Shown here one piece after another: positions 2,296-34,222 of a stretch of DNA of 34,405 nt. The notes below the pieces were generated by a model. It made no database searches and was not told the origin of the DNA. It saw nothing but the letters and a program-made list of their open reading frames with translations. Where the stretch lies: positions 1 through 34,405 of the forward strand of contig CANLKN010000038.1 of NCBI GenBank assembly GCA_947491475.1, written 5' to 3'. This DNA is from Akkermansiaceae bacterium (GTDB taxonomy: Bacteria > Verrucomicrobiota > Verrucomicrobiia > Verrucomicrobiales > Akkermansiaceae). Made by a program: the position numbers and the translations under genes. Positions within the stretch are counted from its first letter, which is position 1. Each line of letters begins with the position of its first letter.

Positions 2296-3084
2296 TCAGC
2301 CCTCCGCGGCCAAAACCTCGATGCCGGCCTGTTCCAACTGCTGCCTGTCGGGACTGCTGATGCGGTCGGTTACCACCGTGTCAATTTGATCGAGCGACGC
2401 AAAGCGGGTGAAGCTCACCCGACCGAATTTCTCGTGATCGCAGAGCAGGTAAACTTTTTTCACCATGCGAAGCATTTCGCGCTTGTTGGTGGCTTGCCCG
2501 AGGTCCGGCGTGGAGGCCCCGGAGTCGATGGAGAAGCCATTGGTGCCGAAAAACCCTTTGTCCACCGAGATCTCGGCCATCCCGTTTTCCCATGCCGGCC
2601 CGATGGTGCACTGGAAACCCTTGCGCACGATGCCGCCCATGAGGAACACATCAATGCCGGGGATGTTTTCTAGCGTCCCGGCCACGACCAAATCGTTGGT
2701 CACTACCGTCAGTTGATCGCGTCTGGCGAGCAGGCGGGCCACCTCGCGGGTGGTGGTTCCGGTGTCCAACAAAATGGTATCGCCGTTCTGGATCTCCTCG
2801 AGCACCAACTTTGCGATGATTTGTTTCTCGGCCGATTGGAGGGCTTCACGCTGGTGCATCTGTGTTTCCAGCCTCGCCTGAGGGCGTTCGATCGCGCCGC
2901 CGTGCGTGCGCAGCAGGAGGAGTGACTGCTCCATATCGCGCAAATCCGTCCGGATGGTAGTGGAGGACACCTTGAGCATTTCTGCCAATTCCGCAACCTG
3001 GACTTTTTTGCGTTCACGGATGAGTTGTTGAATCTTCATCCGCCTTTCTTCGGCAAAAAACGTTTCAACCTTGATGGAAGCCAT
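2296..3084 (-). CDS. DeoR/GlpR-family transcriptional regulator
   Basis: A regulator of 262 residues from the ATG at 3084; the longer GTG frame to 3135 adds 17 residues that do not fit the family. The N-terminal winged helix-turn-helix has the DeoR pattern: AELAEMLKVSSTTIRTDL followed by RTHGGAI. The C-terminal DeoRC sugar-phosphate sensor domain shows LDTGTTTREVARLL, VVTNDLVVA, the MGGIVRKGF motif, KGFFGTNGFS and the late CDHEKFGRVSF block. Members usually repress carbohydrate catabolic genes and are released by a phosphorylated sugar. It is the last gene of a minus-strand run of three glycan-degrading genes, about 100 bases after the six-hairpin gene, so it probably controls that cluster. 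The effector cannot be read from the sequence. No operator was identified. Confidence 0.9.
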   Translation of the reverse strand: MASIKVETFFAEERRMKIQQLIRERKKVQVAELAEMLKVSSTTIRTDLRDMEQSLLLLRTHGGAIERPQARLETQMHQREALQSAEKQIIAKLVLEEIQNGDTILLDTGTTTREVARLLARRDQLTVVTNDLVVAGTLENIPGIDVFLMGGIVRKGFQCTIGPAWENGMAEISVDKGFFGTNGFSIDSGASTPDLGQATNKREMLRMVKKVYLLCDHEKFGRVSFTRFASLDQIDTVVTDRISSPDRQQLEQAGIEVLAAEG

Positions 3085-3187
3085 GGCGGATTGCCGACAC
3101 GATTGTTGCCAGATGGCAAGGCGGAAAATTTTCACAAGTTCGCCGAGTGAGGCGTCACCGGAGCAACATCATGGATTCTTCCGTGCC

Positions 3188-5323: not shown

Positions 5324-7081
5324 TCAGCGGTCACTACTTGGGGGGAATATCAGAAACTCGGTAATCGTCGGTCCGCCTTTGGCCTCGATCACATTCAGGC
5401 GAAGACGCTGCGCAGTGACCGGCGGGAAGCTGGCGCGGAATTTCACGCCAATGGTCGTGCCCTCATGAAAGGATTTCCACTGGCCGTCCTGCCAGGATTC
5501 CAGCGCGAATTTGAGAACTCCCTGCTTTTCCGAATACTCCTCCATGATGAAAACCCGGTCGAATGTCACCGGTTTGCCGAGGTCTAATTCCAGCCATGCG
5601 GATTTCGTGGTTTCGTCGGTGGCCCAGCGGGTGTCATCCCGCCCGTCCACGGCTTTGCCGGGACCAAAATCGGCCATGTCACGATAGACGTTCGAGGCCG
5701 TGGCCTTGGCATTCAGACTGAGCGAAGGCGGCCGAGGCACCACCATCGCCGGAATCGTGAGCGCATCGCCATCAAGCTCCAGCGCGACGATCGTGTAGAG
5801 CGGATCGCGATCGGCTTTCGGAACAGAGACCTTGACGCCATCCGCCGTTTGAAGGACTTCCGCCTTGCCGCCTGTGAGAACACGGCTGCCGACGACCTTC
5901 GCGGCGATCGCGGGCAGATGGAGCGTGTCGCCTTCCCATGTCCGGATATGCAGATAGATTGTTTTTCCCTTCCTCGTGGAAACCCCGTAGTCGCCTGGCT
6001 TGAAGGGCCCGCCACGCGTGCCATAGATGCTCTCACCGTATTTAGTCATCCAGCTGCCGATTTCCCGGAGGCGCTCTACCTGGTTCGGCGGAATCTCGCC
6101 GGTGGGCATCGGCCCGACGTTGAGCAGTAGGTTGCCGTCTCCGCCCACGCTGCCGACGAGCATCTCCATGAACGCCTCGAATGACTTCACTCCGTCGGAT
6201 GGCCCGCCGTAGGCCCAGGCGTCCCGGGACGACATGGTCATGGCCGATTCCCATGGCGTCTGATCGTCATATTCGCCGATGGCATGCTCGGGCGTGTAGT
6301 AGTCGGCATGTCTCGATTTGATGAGCCGGTTACTTTCACGACCCAGGTCGAGCCGGTTGTCGATGATGATTCCCGGCTGGAGGCTCCTGACGAGTTGATA
6401 GGTGTTCTCCTGGTCGTAGAGCGGTTGGCCGAGGTCGAAGTCGAACCACATCAGGTCGATCTTGCCATAGTTGGTGAGCAGTTCGCGCAACTGTTCCTGC
6501 ATCCGGGCGACGAACGCGGCATTGCGCTCGGTGCGGAAGTCCGGGTCACGCCAGTCCGGCGGCGAGAAATACATGCCCACTTTCAGACCATGCCTGCGGG
6601 CGGCCGCCGCCACCTCGGCGACGAGATCGCGTTTGAAGGGCGTAGCGGTGATGTTGTAGTCGCACGAAGGCGAGTCCCATAGCAGGAAACCGTCGCAGTG
6701 CTTGGCCACGAAGACGATGTATCTCATGCCCGCCGCCTTGGCGGTTTCCATCCACTCATCGGCGTTGAAACGCGTCGGGTTGAACTGCTTGTAGAGGTTG
6801 TCATACTCCTCGGCCGGGATCTCCCCCCTGTTGGGGCAGAGAGGATTGGTATTGGCCCGCGACCAACTGATTTCCGTGCCCTTGAGGCTGACTGGCCCCC
6901 AATGGATGAACATTCCCAAACGTGCGTCGGTCCACCATTGAAGGCGTTCTGGAAAAGGCTTTGGCGGCAAGGATGGCGCGGCTGCAGTTTCTTGCGCAAA
7001 GAGGCACGGCTGCGCCAAACCCAGAGCAAGAAAAACCGCCGCGACTAATCCGCTATGCTGGCGAAACAACAGGGATGACAT
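5324..7081 (-). CDS. alpha-L-fucosidase, GH29, with C-terminal F5/8 type C domain
   Basis: A 585-residue exported enzyme (signal peptide about 1-30, cleavage near LFA) that should release L-fucose by a retaining mechanism. The GH29 domain covers about residues 40-370: WWTDARLGMFIHWGP, the HCDGF motif (H128), the catalytic nucleophile D214 in DLMWFDFDL, and NLLLNVGPMPTGEIP near the end. The general acid/base is less conserved in GH29 and was not assigned. A beta-sandwich follows, then a discoidin/CBM32-like domain at about 465-580 (FGPGKAVDGRDDTRWAT, WLELDLGKPVTFDRVFI, FLIF) that probably binds the glycan. The start codon lies 32 bases after the stop of the upstream GH99-like gene, so cotranscription is likely. 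Motifs resemble the subfamily with long C-terminal modules, but linkage specificity is not predictable here. Confidence 0.92.
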   Translation of the reverse strand: MSSLLFRQHSGLVAAVFLALGLAQPCLFAQETAAAPSLPPKPFPERLQWWTDARLGMFIHWGPVSLKGTEISWSRANTNPLCPNRGEIPAEEYDNLYKQFNPTRFNADEWMETAKAAGMRYIVFVAKHCDGFLLWDSPSCDYNITATPFKRDLVAEVAAAARRHGLKVGMYFSPPDWRDPDFRTERNAAFVARMQEQLRELLTNYGKIDLMWFDFDLGQPLYDQENTYQLVRSLQPGIIIDNRLDLGRESNRLIKSRHADYYTPEHAIGEYDDQTPWESAMTMSSRDAWAYGGPSDGVKSFEAFMEMLVGSVGGDGNLLLNVGPMPTGEIPPNQVERLREIGSWMTKYGESIYGTRGGPFKPGDYGVSTRKGKTIYLHIRTWEGDTLHLPAIAAKVVGSRVLTGGKAEVLQTADGVKVSVPKADRDPLYTIVALELDGDALTIPAMVVPRPPSLSLNAKATASNVYRDMADFGPGKAVDGRDDTRWATDETTKSAWLELDLGKPVTFDRVFIMEEYSEKQGVLKFALESWQDGQWKSFHEGTTIGVKFRASFPPVTAQRLRLNVIEAKGGPTITEFLIFPPSSDR

Positions 7082-9155: not shown

Positions 9156-10922
<1,767 letters not shown>

Positions 10923-11047
10923 GGACTGGCAGCAGACTGATTCCCGCTGCGGTGCCATTCAAGGCACAATTTGTGATTCCGCAACCAGGCGTATCAGGGG
11001 GAATTTATTGTTTTTACTCACACGGGTTTGTCAGCCAATTTGCCCAC

Positions 11048-12796
11048 ATGCATGCGATGAAACAGCTCACGATGATCACAGCCCTCGCTCTTGGAATGGC
11101 CAATGCCGCCGAAACCGCCGCAGAGCGCGACGAACGCATGGCGTGGTGGCGTGAGGCGAAGTTCGGCGTTTTCATCCACTGGGGCGTTTATGCCGTCCCG
11201 GCCGGCATCCACAATGGCAAGGAGGTTCCGGGCATCGGCGAGTGGATCATGCTGCGCGCCCGCATCCCGGTGGCCGAATACCGTGCTTATGCCAAGGAAT
11301 TCACCGCTTCGAAATACGATCCCGAAGCCTTGGCGGAGCTGATCAAGGAGGCCGGCGCGCGCTACACGGTCATCACCTCGAAACATCACGACGGCTTCGC
11401 GCTTTACCCCTCGGCCGTCACCGATTGGGACGCTGCGGATTCCTCCCCAGCCGGCCGCGATCTGCTTGCGCCGCTTGCCGCCGCCGTCCGCCAGCGGGAC
11501 ATCCGCTTCGGTCTCTACTTTTCCCAGGCCCAAGACTGGGTGCACCCCGGTGGAGCCAAGGCGGAAATGAAGGAGGGCGAAGGTTGGGATCCCGCCCATG
11601 ATGGGGATTTCGATGATTTTCTCCGCGACATCGCAGTGCCCCAAACGCGCGAAATCCTGCTCCGCTACCAGCCTGACATCCTGTGGTGGGACACCCCTGC
11701 ATGGATGACCACCGAACGCGCCCGCCCGCTGGCCGAACTGATCCCGTTGCGCCCCGGATTGATCACCAACAACCGCCTCGGCGGCGATTTTCCAGGTGAT
11801 ACCGAGACCCCCGAGCAATTCGTTCCTGCCACCGGTTTCCCCGGCCGCGATTGGGAGGCCTGCATGACCATGAACGAGACTTGGGGCTACAAGAGCAACG
11901 ACCAGAATTGGAAAACCCCCGCCGAACTCATCCAAACCCTCGTCGATTGCGTCAGCAAGGGTGGAAATTTCCTTCTCAACCTCGGGCCCACGCCGGAAGG
12001 CGAGATCCCAGCTCCCAGCATCGAGCGGATGAAGGCCATCGGTGCGTGGATGAGCAAAAATGGCGAGGCGATTTATGGCACCACCGCCAGCCCCTTCCTC
12101 AAACTCGACTGGGGCCGCTGCACCAAGCGCCTGAGCGCTGACGGTGGCACATTGTTCCTTCACGTCTTCGAATGGCCGGCTGACGGCCAACTCAATGTCC
12201 CCGGCCTGCGCAGCAAGATCACCGCCGCCAGCATGCTCGATGGCGGTGCGAAACTCGAATTTGCCACCACCGATGCCGGCCTGCGCATCAAACTGCCCGC
12301 CAACAAACCGGACCCCTCCGCCTCGGTCATTGCTGTGGAATTCACCGGCGCACTCACCGTCGAGCAGCAGCTGCCCGGCCCGCTCGCCGATGGCAGCATC
12401 AAACTGCCCGCCGCCATCGCCGACATCCACAACCACGTGCTCGCCCAAGCCCGCATCGACGGCCGTGGCGACGAAGCCCGCGTCACCGGATGGACCCGCG
12501 AACTCATCAGTGTCTCGTGGGATTTCCAGGCGAAAAGCCCCGGCCGTTTTGAGCTGACCGCCAGTCACAGCGGCCCGGACAGCGCCAACAAGGGCAGCCT
12601 CCAACTCGGCAAAACCCAGCAAGAGATCGAGTTCCCCGCCTCCCCCGCCGGCCAACGCGCCAGCACCGCCCTCGGCGTGGTCGAGATCCCGGAAGCCGGC
12701 ACCTACCGCATCGAAATCAAACCCAAGGACAAAAACTGGAAGCCGCTCGATCTCTTCGGGCTCTCCTTGAAACCCGTGCCTTCTCATGTCCGATAG
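11048..12796 (+). CDS. alpha-L-fucosidase, GH29, without discoidin domain
   Basis: A second GH29 enzyme, 582 residues from the ATG at 11048 (the ATG at 11057 is equally possible; the signal peptide ends near MANA). The upstream open frame is not used, since it would overlap ptsI on the other strand. Signatures: WWREAKFGVFIHWGVY, the HHDGF motif (H113-H114), nucleophile D215 in DILWWDTPAW, and FLLNLGPTPEGEIP. It belongs to a different GH29 branch from the gene at 5324-7081, having KHHDGF rather than KHCDGF and lacking the F5/8 domain. The C-terminal part, about residues 470-575, is a beta-sandwich of unknown role. The last codons overlap the next gene by 11 bases. The final residues SHVR are absent from a duplicate of this tail found at 13286-13364, which ends at KPVP followed by a stop. 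Confidence 0.92.
   Translation: MHAMKQLTMITALALGMANAAETAAERDERMAWWREAKFGVFIHWGVYAVPAGIHNGKEVPGIGEWIMLRARIPVAEYRAYAKEFTASKYDPEALAELIKEAGARYTVITSKHHDGFALYPSAVTDWDAADSSPAGRDLLAPLAAAVRQRDIRFGLYFSQAQDWVHPGGAKAEMKEGEGWDPAHDGDFDDFLRDIAVPQTREILLRYQPDILWWDTPAWMTTERARPLAELIPLRPGLITNNRLGGDFPGDTETPEQFVPATGFPGRDWEACMTMNETWGYKSNDQNWKTPAELIQTLVDCVSKGGNFLLNLGPTPEGEIPAPSIERMKAIGAWMSKNGEAIYGTTASPFLKLDWGRCTKRLSADGGTLFLHVFEWPADGQLNVPGLRSKITAASMLDGGAKLEFATTDAGLRIKLPANKPDPSASVIAVEFTGALTVEQQLPGPLADGSIKLPAAIADIHNHVLAQARIDGRGDEARVTGWTRELISVSWDFQAKSPGRFELTASHSGPDSANKGSLQLGKTQQEIEFPASPAGQRASTALGVVEIPEAGTYRIEIKPKDKNWKPLDLFGLSLKPVPSHVR
12706..12780 (+). repeat. direct repeat copy A (3' end of the GH29 gene)
   Basis: These 75 bases recur at 13286-13360 with only three mismatches, at a distance of 580 bases. 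They encode the last conserved residues of the fucosidase, from RIEIKPKDK to LKPVP. Two mismatches are silent and one changes Asn to Ser. Copy A continues into SHVR and a TAG at 12794. Confidence 0.95.
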
Positions 12797-13283
12797 CAAC
12801 ATGAGAATCCATCAAGCACCCTGGGGCAAGGCTCTGATCGTGGTTTCCAGCCTGCTGATTGTTTTGTGCGTCGTCAACGTGGCGGTGTTTCGGGCTCTCC
12901 TCCCGGAAGAACCACGGGCCATGCTCCTTCTTGCACAGTGGGCCTTGCCGATGATCGTGCTGGCCTGTTTGCCGTTCATGATCCGCAGTTATGCCATTAC
13001 GGATGATGCGATTTTGATCCGGCGTCTGTTCTGGACTACGCGTTTGGAGCGCAGTGGAATGAAATCGGCGGAATTCTTGCCGAATGCGATGAGCAAAAGC
13101 CTGCGGACCTGCGGTAACGGCGGAGCTTTTTCCTTCACCGGTTGGTATTGGAACAAGTCGCTTGGATTTTACCGAGCGTTCGTGACTGACTTGAACCGGA
13201 CGGTGGTGCTGCATTTTGCAAAGCGAACCGTGATGGTGTCGCCGGTAGATCCGGAGGAATTCGTGAGCGATTTGAATGCATAA
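12786..13283 (+). CDS. bacterial PH-like domain membrane protein
   Basis: A 165-residue protein with two hydrophobic helices at about residues 12-36 and 44-64, then a soluble part from about residue 65 to 165. That part begins SYAITDDAILIRRLFWTTRLE and ends VSPVDPEEFVSDL, the pattern of small bacterial PH-domain proteins (bPH): a beta strand after the membrane pair, an internal loop and a final helix with a DPEEF-type motif. The role is unknown; such proteins are often only described as membrane-anchored PH-like domains. Its ATG overlaps the fucosidase stop region by 11 bases, and M6 (position 12801) is another possible start. The gene lies exactly between two copies of the fucosidase 3' tail, which indicates it was inserted there. 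Confidence 0.7.
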   Translation: MSDSNMRIHQAPWGKALIVVSSLLIVLCVVNVAVFRALLPEEPRAMLLLAQWALPMIVLACLPFMIRSYAITDDAILIRRLFWTTRLERSGMKSAEFLPNAMSKSLRTCGNGGAFSFTGWYWNKSLGFYRAFVTDLNRTVVLHFAKRTVMVSPVDPEEFVSDLNA

Positions 13284-13285
13284 AG

Positions 13286-13364
13286 CCGCATCGAAATCAA
13301 ACCCAAGGACAAGAGCTGGAAGCCGCTCGATCTCTTCGGGCTCTCTTTGAAACCCGTGCCCTGA
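13286..13364 (+). pseudogene. orphan GH29 3'-end fragment (repeat copy B)
   Basis: Bases 13286-13360 repeat 12706-12780 at 72 of 75 positions. In frame they read RIEIKPKDKSWKPLDLFG and on to LKPVP, then a TGA at 13362-13364. There is no start codon and no fucosidase body in front, only the PH-domain gene, whose TAA ends at 13283. This looks like the original 3' end of the fucosidase, displaced when the PH gene arrived. Because two of the three differences are silent, the copies seem to have diverged while coding, for example in different strains, rather than decaying after a recent duplication. Confidence 0.85.
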
Positions 13365-13438
13365 GCGAGATTAAAACCAAGCGGAACACCGATCACCATC
13401 TGACTCATTTCCTCCCGGGCAAGGATGTCTGATTTTGG

Positions 13439-14275
13439 TTAGATTTTCCCGGCGATGCTGCCCGATTTCACCTTGGCTCCGGGATAGTGCGCGAGGATTT
13501 GTGCTTTGAGGCTCCGCAGGAAATTTGCGGAACCGAACTCCGGCAGCGGGATGCGATGATTAATCTTCTGGCTGGCGATTGCTTCGTCGGTGACAATGAA
13601 AGCTCCGGCATCGTAGAGTCTTGTGCCGATGCTTTGTTTCATGAAGATCTTGTATCGCGCGGCGTAGGAAGGGCCATCAAAGGTTTCGAGGTTGGAGCTG
13701 CCGGACGTGCGGAAAGGTGTCATTGCCTCGAAGTGCGGCTGTTTGATTTTCACCGGTTTGCTGTCCACAGAAGGATCGTATTTGCCGACGAAGAGATAGC
13801 CGAGCCATGGCCGTGGCAGTTGCCGCACAAATCCGTCATGCTCGTAGGTCATCCAAAAATCGGTGGCATTGCCGAGGCTTTCCTCCATTCGGTTGTTCTG
13901 GTTGTTGCCGATGCTTTTGTCCTGCGACTTGAACTCGGTGGCGGCGTAGAGAACGGGCTCTTCCTTGTCGCCTTTGGCCGAGTGGAAGCGGCTGTTGGCG
14001 AGAACGATGATGTCCCAGTTTTTGGAAGGGCGGAAGTAGGAGGGCAGAATGGAGGGAGTGCTGGTGAGATGACCTCCAGCAAAAATGTGCTCCGGTTTGA
14101 CGTTGAGACCGATGAGGAAATCACGGATCGCGAGCGCGAAGCCATCCATCGTCTTTCCATGGAGATTCGCGTCACGTGTGCCGCCTTGGGCTTTCTTGGG
14201 CACAGCACTTTTCTTCGATGCCCACCAATGTTGGATCGCCTTGTGAAACAGGTCGGTTTCGGAAAACGCTTTCAT
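13439..14275 (-). CDS. type II restriction endonuclease, XhoI/PaeR7I family
   Basis: 278 residues from the ATG at 14275; the longer frame reaching 14818 lies inside the methyltransferase gene and reads as Arg/Pro/His-rich text, so it is discarded. The protein matches the XhoI/PaeR7I group from memory: GGTRDANLHGKTMDGFALAI, SYFRPSKNWDIIVL, ATEFKSQ, the GNNQNNRMEESLG block and PRPWLGYLF. A PD-(D/E)xK active site is provided by D88 in NWDIIVL with E114 and K116 in TEFKS. Family members cut CTCGAG; the specificity here is inferred. It is slightly longer than PaeR7I (about 246). The start overlaps the stop of the methyltransferase gene in an ATGA, so translation is probably coupled, with methylase first. 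The stop lies about 75 bases from the displaced fucosidase tail. Confidence 0.88.
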   Translation of the reverse strand: MKAFSETDLFHKAIQHWWASKKSAVPKKAQGGTRDANLHGKTMDGFALAIRDFLIGLNVKPEHIFAGGHLTSTPSILPSYFRPSKNWDIIVLANSRFHSAKGDKEEPVLYAATEFKSQDKSIGNNQNNRMEESLGNATDFWMTYEHDGFVRQLPRPWLGYLFVGKYDPSVDSKPVKIKQPHFEAMTPFRTSGSSNLETFDGPSYAARYKIFMKQSIGTRLYDAGAFIVTDEAIASQKINHRIPLPEFGSANFLRSLKAQILAHYPGAKVKSGSIAGKI

Positions 14276-15912
14276 GTCGGAATTTTGTCGATCTGATAGG
14301 CATCCAACGCGGCCTGGGTGGCAAGCTTGAAGTCCTGGGTCGCGAAGGCGTGGCGAAGTGTGTCGGCTAATTTTGGGGAAATGGATTTTGGATCGGGCAC
14401 ACGGATACGGCGCAGGTATTGGGCTTGGAAGCGGAGATAGCCGCCACGCATGCGGACACCGTAACAGTGGATGAAGAATTCGCCGACGGCGGACATGAGC
14501 AAGGCTCCCAGCACTTTGAGATCCCAAATGTCCGAGGTGATCCAGTAGAGATTGTGCTGCGGGTAGGTCTTGCCGGTGTCGAGTGCTGGAAGCAGGCGGT
14601 CCTTGATGTCGGCAATGTAGAGTTTGTGTTTTTTGACGAGCGCGAGGTTCACGCGGTCGATGGTCTTGTGCCAGTTCTCGGCGCGATCCTTTTTCGCGGT
14701 GTGGCGGCTGGAAAGCAGTTCGTGGTGTGGCCCAAGGTGTTTTCTCAGTTGTGGATAGTCGTCGAGCTTGACCAAGCCACTGCCGTTCCATGGATTCGCC
14801 ATGCAGTGGCCGGACCACTTGACTTTGCCCTCATGCAGATCGGAGGCGAGAGCAAGCGGCAGGATGCGGTCGGGTTCGATGTCCGGCTTGTTGGGGGAAA
14901 TGAAAACCTTGTCCGCTCCGGTGGCGACACCAATGCCGATCTTGGTGCCGGTCGTCTTGCATTCGAGGGGAAAGCAGGTGGATTCGAGGTGCTTGAGGAG
15001 TTTCAAAGCCTCGGGCGAGGAACAAGGCCAGGGTTCGGTGCCGTGAAACCAATCGACGAATCGCGCACTCTTGAGATGCCGATTGTGGTCGAGCTTCGGT
15101 CCGAGCGATTCCATCAGGCGGAGGCTGCTTTCGGTTTCGATGCCGGGCAGAGCTTTGGAAACGATGACCGGCCCCTGTTCCTCGCGGGCAATGATGGTGA
15201 CGGCGGGGTAGGCGGAAACCTCGCTCTCAAAAGCCTGCACGTCGTGGGCCTCGATGATGTGGCGGACGTTGTAACCCTCGGTGGTGATGAACTCGCGCAG
15301 GGCGCTGCCGTAGTCGTTGAGCATCCAGCGGTCGGCGCAGATGTAGGCGCAGACGCCGCCTGGCTTGAGCTGGAGTAGAGAGGCTTGATAGAAGGCGACG
15401 TAGATGTCTGCCCGGCCGCGCATGGCGCTGAATCCGTTGCGATACATCGCCGCCTTCTTCTCGGGAATCTCCTCCATACGAATATAGGGTGGATTGCCGA
15501 TGACGAAGTCGGCGATGGGGAAACAGAGCGAGACTTCCAGGAAATCACGGACCTTGATCCAACTCTGCGCGAGCTTTTCGGCCGTGGCGGAAGGAACCCG
15601 TAGGGAAATCAAAGTCTCCCTAACAACGCCCGTCGCCTTTTTTGCAGCTTCCGGATCGATCTCAAAGGCCTGCAAGGCCGAGGTGGCATGATTCAATGGC
15701 GTGCCGTGGCGTTCGCAGGAATCCACCAAACGCCGGACCATCGCGCTAAGAAAGGCACCATCTCCGGCGGACGGCTCCAGCGCCACCATGTCCGCCAAGC
15801 ACTTCTCCGGCAAGTATCCGGCCAAATCGAGCACCAACTCCACCAACCACGGCTTGGTGTAAACGACACCCGCTTCGCGCGGTGGGAGAAGGGTGGCGTC
15901 CAAGTAAATCAT
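14272..15912 (-). CDS. N6-adenine DNA methyltransferase of the XhoI/PaeR7I-type system
   Basis: A 546-residue gamma-type methyltransferase that should transfer a methyl group from S-adenosylmethionine to adenine N6 at the site recognised by the partner nuclease. Motif I is seen as LEPSAGDGAFL at residues 45-55, an acidic motif as AFEIDPEAA near 82-90, and the catalytic motif IV as N140-PPY in DFVIGNPPYIRMEE. GGVCAYICADRWM (about 205) follows the usual post-motif pattern of TaqI-like enzymes. The C-terminal 250 residues form the presumed target-recognition region. The size is close to M.PaeR7I (about 530). It precedes the endonuclease and overlaps it by 4 bases. CTCGAG occurs at 2797-2802 and 10554-10559, so the host chromosome would need this protection if the inferred specificity is right. 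Confidence 0.88.
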   Translation of the reverse strand: MIYLDATLLPPREAGVVYTKPWLVELVLDLAGYLPEKCLADMVALEPSAGDGAFLSAMVRRLVDSCERHGTPLNHATSALQAFEIDPEAAKKATGVVRETLISLRVPSATAEKLAQSWIKVRDFLEVSLCFPIADFVIGNPPYIRMEEIPEKKAAMYRNGFSAMRGRADIYVAFYQASLLQLKPGGVCAYICADRWMLNDYGSALREFITTEGYNVRHIIEAHDVQAFESEVSAYPAVTIIAREEQGPVIVSKALPGIETESSLRLMESLGPKLDHNRHLKSARFVDWFHGTEPWPCSSPEALKLLKHLESTCFPLECKTTGTKIGIGVATGADKVFISPNKPDIEPDRILPLALASDLHEGKVKWSGHCMANPWNGSGLVKLDDYPQLRKHLGPHHELLSSRHTAKKDRAENWHKTIDRVNLALVKKHKLYIADIKDRLLPALDTGKTYPQHNLYWITSDIWDLKVLGALLMSAVGEFFIHCYGVRMRGGYLRFQAQYLRRIRVPDPKSISPKLADTLRHAFATQDFKLATQAALDAYQIDKIPT

Positions 15913-15914
15913 AA

Positions 15915-15947
15915 GTTCAGGTGAACAGTTTTCGTGTGGCTTGTCAA
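15915..15947 (-). promoter_or_regulatory. palindrome and -35-like box upstream of the methyltransferase
   Basis: Directly upstream of the ATG (15912) lies GTTCAGGTGAAC at 15915-15926, an inverted repeat with a 2-base centre. On the minus strand a perfect TTGACA occurs at 15947-15942, but no good -10 box stands at 16-18 bases from it; the region that would hold it is the palindrome itself. This could be a promoter with an operator over the -10 element, for example for methylase autoregulation. That is inference. Confidence 0.3.
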
Positions 15948-15948
15948 A

Positions 15949-16461
15949 GGGAGATTATGGCTGGGGGAAAGGTTGTTGAGAGAGCGCGGCTTGAAAAGTG
16001 AGGCGTGGGTGGGTCAGGGTCCCATTCGAGGCGGAAGAATACGCGGCCGGTGGGGGAGAGGGGAGCGGTCCAGTGATGGGGCTGCGGCGGGTTGGCGGCG
16101 GTGAAGGTGTGGCGGGGCGGGCGGGGTGTGGGGCTTGTTGCATTTCGGAAGACGCCGGGCGTTGCGTGGCGTGTGGCATGGGATGGGAGAGTTCGAGGTT
16201 ATTGGTTGGGTGAGCAGTGAGCATTATTGGAAACCTGGTGAGCCTTGGCGATGAAGTATTCTAGGAAATGCTGGTATCCCTTGGATCCGGGGCCAGTGGA
16301 ATAACGCTGGATGGAATCCTCGACGGTGCGGATGCACAGGGTCCAGAGAAAAAGTCCTGATCGAGTTTGCCGTCTGGTGAAAAACTCTCAAATCATGCGC
16401 TTCACCTGCCATCCTGCGCTTCTGCCTTGTTCGTAGTGTTTCGGGCGCATACCCGCCCGCC
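15949..16461. other. gene-free interval with protein-like fragments
   Basis: About 510 bases without an intact gene. On the minus strand, a frame ending at a TGA at 15944-15946 reads, around 16020-16110, HTFTAANPPQPHHWTAPL followed by GRVFFRLEW. This resembles the tail of the secreted multi-domain proteins common in Verrucomicrobiota. A second minus-strand frame at about 16210-16390 reads LWTLCIRTVEDSIQRYSTG followed by GYQHFLEYFIAKAHQ, protein-like but without a start codon. The plus strand is strikingly G-rich around 16030-16140. These may be remnants of lost genes; neither is assigned. Confidence 0.35.
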
Positions 16462-30526: not shown

Positions 30527-32014
30527 TTATGGAAAAATTTCCGCCGTGCCCACGGCATTCGCGCGCACCCTGCCATGGTGATCGATAAAGGGCTCGGGGT
30601 TTTCCACCCGTCCCAGCAAGCGCACGCCGGGGCCTTTCGAATCGGGCTTGATGCCGAGATCGGCGTCCATGGTGGCGGCGAGTTGTTGAAGCTTTTTGAC
30701 GATCTCGGGATTTCCGGCGGCAACGTTTTTCGTTTCGCCGATGTCGGATTCGAGATGATAGAGGGCGAGGTTAGGAGCTTTGTTTTTCGCAGTGCCGAAA
30801 TGCAGTTTCCATGGACCGCTGCGGATCGCCTCTAACTGAAAACCGCGGAAGTAATGGAAAACCTCGTGAGCTTTCGCATCTGGTTTCCCGAGCCAGACGC
30901 CCGAGACATCGATGCCATCGAGCTTGCGGTCTTCGGGCGGGCTTGTCCCGGCGAGGGCGGCGAGGGTCGGGAGCACATCGTGCATGCCGGTGATCGCATC
31001 GCTGCGGGTGCCAGCGGGGATTTTTCCAGGCCACCAGACGATGGTGGGGACGCGCACGCCGCCTTCCCAAGTGCTGGCCTTGTGGCCGCGCAGCGGCGCG
31101 TTGGAACCGCCCGGGGTGCCGCCGTTGTCCGAGGTGAAAAGCACGACGGTGCGTTCGGCGATGCCGAGTTCGCGCAGGATGTCGAGCACGCGGCCGACAC
31201 TCCAATCCATCTCCTCGACCCAATCGCCATAAAGTCCGTTGTTCGATTTACCGACCCATTCCTTGCCCGGGTAAAGCGGCAAGTGCACGGCAGCGTGCGG
31301 CAGGTAGAGGAAAAACGGCCGCTCGGCATTTTTGCGGACAAATTTCACCGCCGCTTCGGTGAAGGTTTGCACGATGGCCTGATGCTCGGCCTGTCGCACC
31401 CGCCCCGCGACCTTGTCGTTTTCTAACAACGGTAACGGCTGTTGTTGATATTTGCCGGCGATTCCCACTTCATTTTCACCGGGCTTGCCGGGCTCGCGGG
31501 TGTCTTTGGGGATCGGCGCGCCGAGATTGCTTTTGATTCCATCAATCGCAGGGCCCATGTCGTTCGAGTAGGGAATGCCGAAGTAGTAGTCGAAACCCTG
31601 GGCCGTGGGGAGAAACGGCGGTTGGTCGCCGAGATGCCACTTGCCGATGCAGGCGGTGGCATATCCCGAGCCGCTCAGAACTTCGGCGATGGTGACTTCA
31701 TCGGGATGCAGCCCCACGTAGCCAGCGGGGAAGAGCACGTGCGGGCTGGGCAGAGCGCGTTTCGGGTAAGATCCCGTCATCAACGCGGCGCGCGAGGGTG
31801 AGCAGACCGGAGCCGCGTAGAAGGAAGTCAGCTTGCGCCCTTCCTTCGCCATGCGGTCGAGGTTAGGGGTGCGGTTGAGCGTCGAGCCGAAGGGACCGAT
31901 GTCTCCATAGCCGAGGTCGTCGATGTTGATGACGATGAAGTTGGGTTTCTCCGCGCCAGCCAGCGCAAGCGACAGCGTGACGGCCAGGCCTGTTAGTATG
32001 GCGGAGGCTATCAT
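30527..32014 (-). CDS. secreted arylsulfatase, S1 family
   Basis: 495 residues with a signal peptide ending near ALAGA. Formylglycine-type sulfatase: C71 in APVCSPSRAALMTGS is the Cys matured to formylglycine, within the C-x-P-S-R motif, and D32-D33 in NIDDLGYGD bind Ca2+. GYATACIGKWHLGDQ provides the second motif (K and H), and FTSDNGGTPGGSN the third metal-binding block. It should remove sulfate from a glycan in the periplasm; the exact substrate is not readable. The maturation enzyme is not in the window. It ends the minus-strand run and starts 15 bases after the aldolase gene, so the two are probably one operon. The downstream gap to htpG is about 150 bases and carries the htpG promoter. 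Confidence 0.93.
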   Translation of the reverse strand: MIASAILTGLAVTLSLALAGAEKPNFIVINIDDLGYGDIGPFGSTLNRTPNLDRMAKEGRKLTSFYAAPVCSPSRAALMTGSYPKRALPSPHVLFPAGYVGLHPDEVTIAEVLSGSGYATACIGKWHLGDQPPFLPTAQGFDYYFGIPYSNDMGPAIDGIKSNLGAPIPKDTREPGKPGENEVGIAGKYQQQPLPLLENDKVAGRVRQAEHQAIVQTFTEAAVKFVRKNAERPFFLYLPHAAVHLPLYPGKEWVGKSNNGLYGDWVEEMDWSVGRVLDILRELGIAERTVVLFTSDNGGTPGGSNAPLRGHKASTWEGGVRVPTIVWWPGKIPAGTRSDAITGMHDVLPTLAALAGTSPPEDRKLDGIDVSGVWLGKPDAKAHEVFHYFRGFQLEAIRSGPWKLHFGTAKNKAPNLALYHLESDIGETKNVAAGNPEIVKKLQQLAATMDADLGIKPDSKGPGVRLLGRVENPEPFIDHHGRVRANAVGTAEIFP

Positions 32015-32866: not shown

Positions 32867-34222
32867 TCACGGGATGAAAACCGGCAGCGCCCACTTGCCG
32901 ATGGTGATGGTTTCCCCTGCCGCGCAGTCTTTCTGATAGAGGGTGCAGAAATTCCACGCGACACCCAGGTTGAAAAGACTGATTTCAGTATGCGCGACTT
33001 TTTTGAAACCCTGGTCGAGCAGTGTTTTTTGCTGCGAGTCCGAATTGCGTGACGGCAGCGGCGTGAGAAACCACAAGGTGCCGGCGCGTTCGCAGGTGAG
33101 TTTCTTTTCGGCTTCCAAGGGCACTCTCAGGAAATTGGCCTGCTTGAAGACCTCGGGAACTTCCGCCAGCGTGTAGTCGCGATCGGTGAACAATTTCGCG
33201 ACGACCACGAAGGCCGCGGCATCGAAGCCTTCGATACGGAATGTCCCGGGTTTCGCGGTGCGCAACGGCTCACCGTCGGCGTTCGCCTCGCGCGGCACCG
33301 TCAATTTGCCTTGGCCACCGGTGGCCTTGTTGATCACCTGGCGCAGGCGCACGGCATCACTCACCGGCTTGCCTGCGGCCACGTCCTCCTCGCGAAAAAC
33401 CGCCATGAGGATCTCACGCGCTCCCATGCGATCGAAATCATAAGTGATATGAATCCGCCCGTCGGCGACTTGCTGGCCGTCGGGATAGGAAACGCCCGGG
33501 CGTTCATCGAGCATCAATCCGCCCGACCATGTGTGGCCGTCGTCTTCTGATAGAAATGCGGTCAGCTGTGAGCGGGCGGCCACATTGTCGATGGGGCCGT
33601 GTTTCACCAGGAGCAGATTTCCGGATGCCAGACGGCTGATGAAAAAGCGTGCGGGTGGGTGCTTGATGGCGGAGGGAGCCACTTCCGGCCAGGTCTTGCC
33701 GCGGTCCGTGGAAATGCTCTCACCGATGCCGTATTGGGTGCGTGCGAGCATCCACAGCGAGCCGTCGCGGCGCTCGATGAACATGTGTTCGGGACAAGTC
33801 CTTGCTTCCTTGGGCACGTTGGCCGCGCCGCGGACGGACCAGGTTTTCCCATGATCGGAGGAGACCACCATTTTGCACATGTCATCGATGTCCCATGTCG
33901 CAGCGGGGAGCGCCCACTCGCCGGTGGAAAGCACCAAGGGCTTGCACATCATGATGCCATCGCAAAGGCGGCGCGGTTCGCTCCATTGGGGCTCGGCGGA
34001 TTCCATGTCGGATGCTTCCACCATCCACGTGCCGGAAATTTTGCCCTGATGCCCGATGGCCTGCGCCCAAAACACGAAAAGTCGGTTGTCCGGAGTCACC
34101 CAGATCTCGGGGTCGAACGCGCGCACCGGCCCTTTGGCATCCGGATCGATGATGAGCACTTCCTGCCAGGTCGCGCCATCATCGCCACTGGTGGCGACCA
34201 TCACGTAATTATTGTAATCCAC
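32867..34222 (-). CDS. BNR-repeat sialidase, 5'-truncated by an IS element
   Basis: The readable part has 451 residues, from a GTG formed at the junction with the IS at about 34222. Four Asp-boxes are present in order: SGDDGATW at the very start, SSDHGKTW, STDRGKTW and SEDDGHTW. This places it among exo-alpha-sialidases with a six-bladed propeller. The family's N-terminal Arg (RIP motif) and signal peptide are absent, since the first Asp-box is within the first 20 residues. DARPIPA-type sequences would be upstream, now beyond the IS and outside the window. The gene is therefore very likely inactivated. Its C-terminal 90 residues (about 360-451) are an extra domain ending in IGKWALPVFIP. It is the first gene of the minus-strand run toward the aldolase and sulfatase. 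Confidence 0.8.
   Translation of the reverse strand: MDYNNYVMVATSGDDGATWQEVLIIDPDAKGPVRAFDPEIWVTPDNRLFVFWAQAIGHQGKISGTWMVEASDMESAEPQWSEPRRLCDGIMMCKPLVLSTGEWALPAATWDIDDMCKMVVSSDHGKTWSVRGAANVPKEARTCPEHMFIERRDGSLWMLARTQYGIGESISTDRGKTWPEVAPSAIKHPPARFFISRLASGNLLLVKHGPIDNVAARSQLTAFLSEDDGHTWSGGLMLDERPGVSYPDGQQVADGRIHITYDFDRMGAREILMAVFREEDVAAGKPVSDAVRLRQVINKATGGQGKLTVPREANADGEPLRTAKPGTFRIEGFDAAAFVVVAKLFTDRDYTLAEVPEVFKQANFLRVPLEAEKKLTCERAGTLWFLTPLPSRNSDSQQKTLLDQGFKKVAHTEISLFNLGVAWNFCTLYQKDCAAGETITIGKWALPVFIP

What the first reader, a model, noticed from the sequence alone, without database searches (positions are those of the whole stretch)
12706..13364. PH-domain gene inserted at the fucosidase 3' end with regeneration of the gene tail
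The last 75 conserved bases of the GH29 gene occur twice, at 12706-12780 and 13286-13360, with 3 mismatches. The only thing between them is a complete 165-residue membrane PH-like gene. Copy B ends at KPVP-stop, the apparent ancestral terminus, while the active gene ends in SHVR. This looks like the way integrative elements restore the 3' end of their target gene, but with a single-gene cargo of about 500 bases and no recombinase. Two of three differences are silent, so the copies probably diverged while coding, perhaps in another strain.
Basis: partly seen in the sequence, partly recalled or inferred. Interest (0 to 1): 0.62.

Follow-up and report, generated by a model that had tools for sequence, protein, structure and literature searches.

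The report
One-gene insertion duplicating a gene's tail
A small membrane-protein gene was once dropped into the very end of a sugar-enzyme gene, and the joining process seems to have copied 75 bases of that end, so that the new gene now sits between two copies; this looks like a clean example of a known but seldom described kind of bacterial gene insertion rather than a new mobile element.

Summary
A 75-nt direct repeat (72/75 identical), made of the GH29 fucosidase tail, brackets a 505-nt stretch holding only a bacterial PH-domain (bPH_5) gene. Of 23 related fucosidases compared, 20 end exactly where copy B ends (KPVP) and 21 have nothing beyond it, so SHVR is an added tail. The PH gene occurs in 10 of 72 other congeners, in no locus fetched beside this fucosidase; in six of the ten a sigma-type gene follows it, in at least four behind a DUF4019-protein gene. 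The window's genome shows no DUF4019 gene and only a 36-residue sigma relic on another contig. The PH gene is thus secondary here. The likeness to integrative elements fails: no recombinase, no structured site, and none of 12 other PH genes lies between repeats. Best reading: one insertion with long target duplication, as described in Helicobacter, by template switching or staggered-break repair; the copies then drifted by three transitions. 'Diverged while coding' is not supported (chance 0.11 to 0.26). No relative with the empty site is held, so the ancestral state is inferred from the protein family. Donor and exact chemistry stay open.

The parts
11057..12796 (+). GH29 alpha-L-fucosidase gene (target), now ending SHVR*
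   Evidence: Pfam Alpha_L_fucos E 1.4e-86, Fucosidase_C E 1.5e-5; terminus comparison
12706..12780 (+). repeat copy A: last 75 conserved bases of the fucosidase reading frame, still coding
12781..13285 (+). inserted segment, 505 nt: one complete gene with 20 nt before its ATG and 2 nt after its stop; G+C 53.9% against 63.1% for the fucosidase (the G073 PH gene is also lower than its region, 56.4 against 63.4%)
12781..12796 (+). added fucosidase tail SHVR-stop (first base completes the last Pro codon); possibly the end of a donor gene (..YFIR-stop)
   Evidence: no residue beyond KPVP in 21 of 23 homologues; likeness to donor-like ends not significant, 793 of 13,890 random sites as good
12801..13283 (+). 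PH-domain (bPH_5) membrane protein gene, intact, 160 aa from the second ATG; 4 nt after the fucosidase stop
   Evidence: Pfam PF10882; 38-69% identical homologues in 10 of 72 other congeners; dN/dS about 0.23 against the G073 copy
13286..13360 (+). repeat copy B: duplicated fucosidase tail, between the PH gene and the restriction gene
13361..13364 (+). C-TGA that ends copy B at KPVP, the ancestral fucosidase terminus
13439..14275 (-). XhoI-type restriction endonuclease (ORF 13439-14818, probable ATG with its first base at 14275), neighbour 74 nt beyond copy B's stop, not between the repeats
   Evidence: Pfam XhoI E 3.8e-34, PADLOC REase_II E 9e-36, ORF
14272..15912 (-). type II DNA methyltransferase, probable partner of the above
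   Evidence: Pfam Eco57I E 5.6e-19, PADLOC MTase_II E 4e-172

Best explanation
A fragment of about 505 bases carrying one complete PH-domain gene was inserted one base before the stop codon of a fucosidase gene, and the last 75 bases of the target were duplicated in the same event (insertion with long target duplication). The likeliest chemistry is replication-associated: the polymerase reached the end of the fucosidase gene, switched to a PH-gene template, copied it, and switched back 75 nt upstream of where it had left; repair of a break with 75-nt staggered ends gives the same product. No recombinase is needed. The resident gene kept copy A, lost only its stop and gained four codons (SHVR) up to a stop brought by the insert; copy B became non-coding and the two have since come to differ by three transitions. 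The PH gene begins four bases behind the fucosidase stop, the distance that two of six relatives show behind their upstream gene, so it can be translated by coupling. Shown: the repeat, the insert, the ancestral terminus, the presence of the PH gene elsewhere in the genus. Inferred: one-step origin, template switching, translational coupling.
For: Repeat and its limits. Of 23 aligned GH29 homologues 20 end exactly at the residue where copy B stops, one two residues earlier, one has 1 and one distant one 14 residues more. PH homologues in 10 of 72 other congeners; no relative of this GH29 in the 9.0-19.9 kb fetched around each of the ten (in G073 the contig ends just upstream of PH). In six of ten a related sigma gene follows, whole or in part; in four a DUF4019 gene lies just upstream by search, and in G073 and G024 the upstream frame ends in similar residues by eye. 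The window's genome has no DUF4019 match although the same search rings in 5 of the other 10 genomes given, and only a sigma relic, 36 aa at 78%, closest in DNA (79.4% over 107 nt) to the sigma gene behind G073's PH gene. The genome search reports no second place for the region or for the PH protein. No recombinase or tRNA found. 0 of 12 other PH loci flanked by repeats.
Against: No orthologous empty fucosidase site is held: the nearest GH29 is 53% identical, and none of ten relatives shows a GH29 beside the ptsI gene that adjoins it here (in G031 only 0.6 kb of that side is held). The 4% difference between copies needs time or a second source. Junction microhomology is no better than chance: 7 nt in one of six donor-like loci, reached at 97 of 1,634 control positions; likeness at the left joint is reached at 793 of 13,890. 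The genome is a draft in 182 contigs and reads were not seen.
Confidence: 0.72

Rival explanations
1. Single-crossover integration: a circular DNA carrying the PH gene next to a diverged fucosidase tail from another strain recombined with the resident tail, giving tail-PH-tail.
For: Gives exactly this structure; explains the 4% difference between copies at once; two of three differences are silent.
Against: Needs a pre-existing joint of PH and fucosidase tail, seen in none of the 10 congener PH loci; 75 bp is short for homologous exchange (general knowledge); the silent excess is not significant (0.11-0.26).
Confidence: 0.13
2. Copy B is the stump of a tandem duplicate fucosidase behind the PH gene, the rest lost by deletion.
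For: Tandem GH29 genes occur in the genus (G072 contig 102).
Against: Needs a duplication, a PH insertion between the copies and a deletion ending 2 nt after the PH stop; the repeat search shows nothing else of a second gene.
Confidence: 0.08
3. Assembly chimera of two strains in a draft genome.
For: Draft in 182 contigs, reads not available; the two copies could be two alleles.
Against: At the joint of PH stop and copy B, the bases before copy B do not match those before copy A, so there is no shared stretch through which an assembler would have joined them; genes on both sides are intact.
Confidence: 0.05
4. A recombinase-driven element (integrative element or integron cassette) that restores its target's 3' end.
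For: Position at a gene's 3' end, duplicated tail, single compact gene.
Against: No recombinase among 27 window ORFs scanned, repeat folds like its shuffles, PH elsewhere not flanked by repeats (0 of 12), no match in phage, plasmid or viral collections.
Confidence: 0.02

Closest known systems
Insertion with long target duplication (Nobusato et al. 2000, Helicobacter pylori; known to me here through passages of PMC1643837, PMC3031569, PMC3154945 and PMC4978471, not the original paper)
   Same: A gene-sized insert between long direct repeats made of target sequence, with no mobile-element gene of its own; a type II restriction-modification pair lies 74 nt away.
   Different: There the pattern is frequently tied to restriction-modification genes and was found by comparing two strains; here the insert is a PH-domain gene, the restriction-modification pair is outside the repeats, and no empty strain is held.
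Transposed Arabidopsis genes with flanking repeats (PMC2869330, passages read)
   Same: Single host genes that moved without a transposon, some between direct repeats over 30 bp whose sequence is found at the matching site of a relative.
   Different: Eukaryote; the paper draws excised circles recombining at matching sequence, and names target duplication as an alternative.
Integrative elements that use gene 3' ends (recalled, not from a call)
   Same: Target gene's 3' end present twice around the insert.
   Different: No integrase found, no cargo beyond one gene, resident gene keeps its own tail and gains foreign codons.
Homology-facilitated illegitimate recombination (PMC3240628, search listing only)
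   Same: Recombinase-free capture of short foreign DNA, with homology at one end.
   Different: Whether it leaves a duplicated target like this one was not checked.

Membership tests
Insertion with long target duplication | insert bracketed by long direct repeats | tested here: met
   75 nt, 96%
Insertion with long target duplication | repeat is a single-copy target sequence in an empty relative | tested here: inconclusive
   no orthologous empty site found among 72 other congeners by GH29 search or beside ptsI in ten of them; the family terminus supports copy B as the old end
Insertion with long target duplication | insert foreign to the locus | tested here: met
   PH in 10 of 72 other congeners, no relative of this GH29 in the stretches around them
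Insertion with long target duplication | restriction-modification genes as insert (frequent, not defining) | tested here: not met
   XhoI-type pair lies outside the repeats
Integrative element at a gene 3' end | site-specific recombinase | tested here: not met
   none among 27 window ORFs scanned with Pfam; rest of the genome not scanned
Integrative element at a gene 3' end | same unit found at other sites with the same kind of ends | tested here: not met
   0 of 12 other PH loci flanked by repeats (G073 has only 58 nt upstream)
Integron cassette | foldable attC site beside the gene | tested here: not met
   repeat folds like its shuffles, z -0.02; integrase not sought genome-wide
Insertion sequence or transposon | transposase or inverted ends | tested here: not met
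   no transposase among 27 ORFs; no inverted pair of 30 nt or more in the window; the shorter pairs do not bracket the insert

The most novel reading that the evidence does not exclude
The PH gene was moved within this genome: it left a DUF4019-PH-sigma module, whose only trace is a sigma relic on contig C40, and was set behind a fucosidase in a spacing that allows translational coupling (stop, four bases, ATG), so that a putative regulatory membrane protein gained a new upstream partner by a recombinase-free copy event.
Probability: 0.25. Interest if true: 0.4.

Novelty: new member of a known kind. Interest (0 to 1): 0.22.

Why it matters
Single-gene insertions without mobile-element genes are hard to recognise; here both joints and the duplicated target survive, and the protein family tells which copy of the tail is the old end. 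It shows the pattern known from Helicobacter in a genome of the same genus as an Akkermansiaceae MAG (G073, matched), with cargo that is not a restriction-modification system, and gives a concrete case of a gene set behind a new upstream partner. It does not reveal a new element.

Tried and rejected
Rejected: integron cassette (no foldable site), integrative element, insertion sequence, tandem-gene stump as first choice. Tried without result: an empty site next to ptsI in ten relatives (no GH29 and no restriction-modification pair in the 6.9-20 kb held of each; for G031 only 0.6 kb on the relevant side); PH in phages, plasmids and viral contigs (none); Rfam at gathering thresholds over 10900-16300 (none); likeness of the left joint to donor-like ends (5.7% of random sites as good) and microhomology at the right joint (5.9%), both kept only as suggestions. 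The search for a whole DUF4019 protein in the window's genome was empty but had no control; one search replaced it.

Contig C40 as the former home of the PH module is only probable. For: two of its 17 ORFs of 180 aa or more (a Kup-like transporter, name recalled from its sequence, and one other) have homologues beside PH in three relatives, against two genes in 20 other sampled stretches. Against: order and orientation differ; the sigma family is found in 38 of 73 genomes, often in several copies; G063 and G064 have closely related sigma genes (76-77%) without any PH match, though the relic's DNA is nearer to the sigma genes of G073 and G031 (79, 79%) than to theirs (73, 72%). The low G+C of the insert is weak evidence, since the G073 PH gene is low too.

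Dropped rows: of 29 GH29 loci other than the window's own returned, L044-L049 (partial or 33-51% identical) were not given to the terminus comparison. In one search a window hit antisense to PH was not counted. The 44-nt (86%) and 41-nt (90%) pairs of L092 and L095 were not examined. A 75-80 nt dispersed repeat found in the control sample was first suspected to be a cassette array; orientation and gene content did not bear that out.

Full report
Observation. The repeat is as described: 12706-12780 and 13286-13360, 75 nt, three differences. It is the only strong repeat the window search lists (self-blast E = 2e-28). In 446,406 bases of the same genome (22 stretches, window included) the other long, highly similar pairs are a dispersed 75-80 nt family (27 matches genome-wide) and a contig-end tandem of 68 nt; the rest are 86-90% pairs of 41-74 nt, two of which were not examined. 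The insert, 12781-13285, is 505 nt long, 53.9% G+C against 63.1% in the fucosidase and 60.0% in the genome sample, and holds one intact gene. Its protein matches Pfam bPH_5; homologues begin at the second ATG, 12801.

Which tail is old. Twenty-three GH29 homologues, of the 29 loci other than the window's own that one search returned, were aligned: 20 end exactly at the residue of the last proline of KPVP, one ends two residues earlier, one has one residue more, one distant protein fourteen more. None carries SHVR. Copy B with its TGA is thus the ancestral end of the gene, and SHVR comes from the insert. The insertion point is one base before the old stop codon.

Where the PH gene comes from. 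A PH homologue exists in 11 of 73 genomes of the genus, this one included, 38-69% identical in the other ten. In six of these (G031, G009, G073, G077, G071, G024) a related sigma-type gene follows, whole or in part; in four (G031, G009, G077, G071) a DUF4019 gene lies just upstream by search, and in G073, at its contig edge, and G024 the upstream frame ends in similar residues by eye. In G009 another ORF lies between PH and sigma. In the remaining four (G075, G086, G035, G080) neither was found in the stretch fetched around PH. The window's genome has no DUF4019 match (where the search rings in five of the other ten genomes) and only a sigma relic on contig C40 (49 aligned residues at 61%; 36 at 78%), whose DNA is closest (79.4% over 107 nt) to the sigma gene behind the G073 PH gene. 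The neighbourhood of this relic shares two genes with native PH loci of three relatives, in different order. This fits a former home of the module, but sigma genes of this kind also occur without PH (G063, G064), so it does not prove that the PH gene moved from there rather than arriving from another cell.

Is the PH gene itself mobile? Nothing says so. Twelve other PH loci were tested for direct repeats between 2 kb on either side (58 nt upstream only in G073, 1.7 kb downstream in G024): none has one above chance, the best E being 0.02. It was not found in the phage, plasmid or viral collections. No recombinase or transposase was found among the 27 window ORFs scanned and no tRNA, and the 75-nt repeat folds like its shuffles.

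How it arose. One-step template switching with return 75 nt upstream, or repair of a widely staggered break, yields exactly tail-insert-tail without a recombinase. Microhomology at the right joint (7 nt in one donor-like locus of six) and likeness of the SHVR codons to the donor-like upstream gene end (..FIR-stop in most; the same 4-nt distance to the PH start in G073 and G031, two of six) point that way but are matched by 5.9% and 5.7% of control positions. Single crossover of a circle carrying a diverged tail is the main rival. The PH gene has stayed intact, and its differences from three relatives lie mainly at third codon positions (dN/dS 0.20-0.28), though this covers its whole history.

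Known kind. Insertion with long target duplication was described from two Helicobacter pylori genomes and is frequently linked to restriction-modification genes; I read passages on it in PMC1643837, PMC3031569, PMC3154945 and PMC4978471, not the original paper. An XhoI-type restriction-modification pair lies 74 nt beyond copy B's stop, outside the repeats. Moved plant genes show similar flanking repeats (PMC2869330, passages). Of the searches for this phrase and for related wordings I saw titles and starts of abstracts only (8 of 49 papers); none of those listed names a PH gene or this bacterial group. Searches on DUF4019 and on fucosidase with Luteolibacter listed nothing on this locus in the titles and abstract starts shown.

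Limits. No relative with the empty fucosidase site is held (nearest GH29 53%; none of ten ptsI neighbourhoods shows it), and reads were not available.

Noticed in passing
L083:157-236 and 26 more places in the window's genome (e.g. L102:577-654, 1482-1556, 2591-2666, 3067-3141, 9444-9520): A 75-80 nt dispersed repeat, 77-100% identical, sometimes in tandem pairs and running into ORFs; 27 matches, some partial. Not an ordinary cassette array, nature unknown.
   Followed up: partly
L064, L065, L066, L067, L068: A recurring module in the genus: DUF4019 protein (with an ExbD-like part in G031), bPH_5 membrane protein, sigma-type factor; in G062 (L080:8002-8346) a different ORF of about 115 codons takes the PH place.
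   Followed up: partly
L054:6417-6524 (G000 contig C40:14416-14523): Relic of a sigma gene, 36 residues at 78% identity to the sigma protein of the PH module of G073.
   Followed up: yes
13439-15912 (-): XhoI-type restriction endonuclease and its probable methyltransferase, overlapping by 4 nt if the endonuclease starts at 14275, convergent with the fucosidase-PH pair.
   Followed up: partly
5324-7081 (-): A second GH29 fucosidase with an F5/8 type C domain; a sulfatase (30527-32014) and a BNR-repeat protein (32867-34222) also lie in the window, which suggests a glycan-degrading neighbourhood.
   Followed up: no
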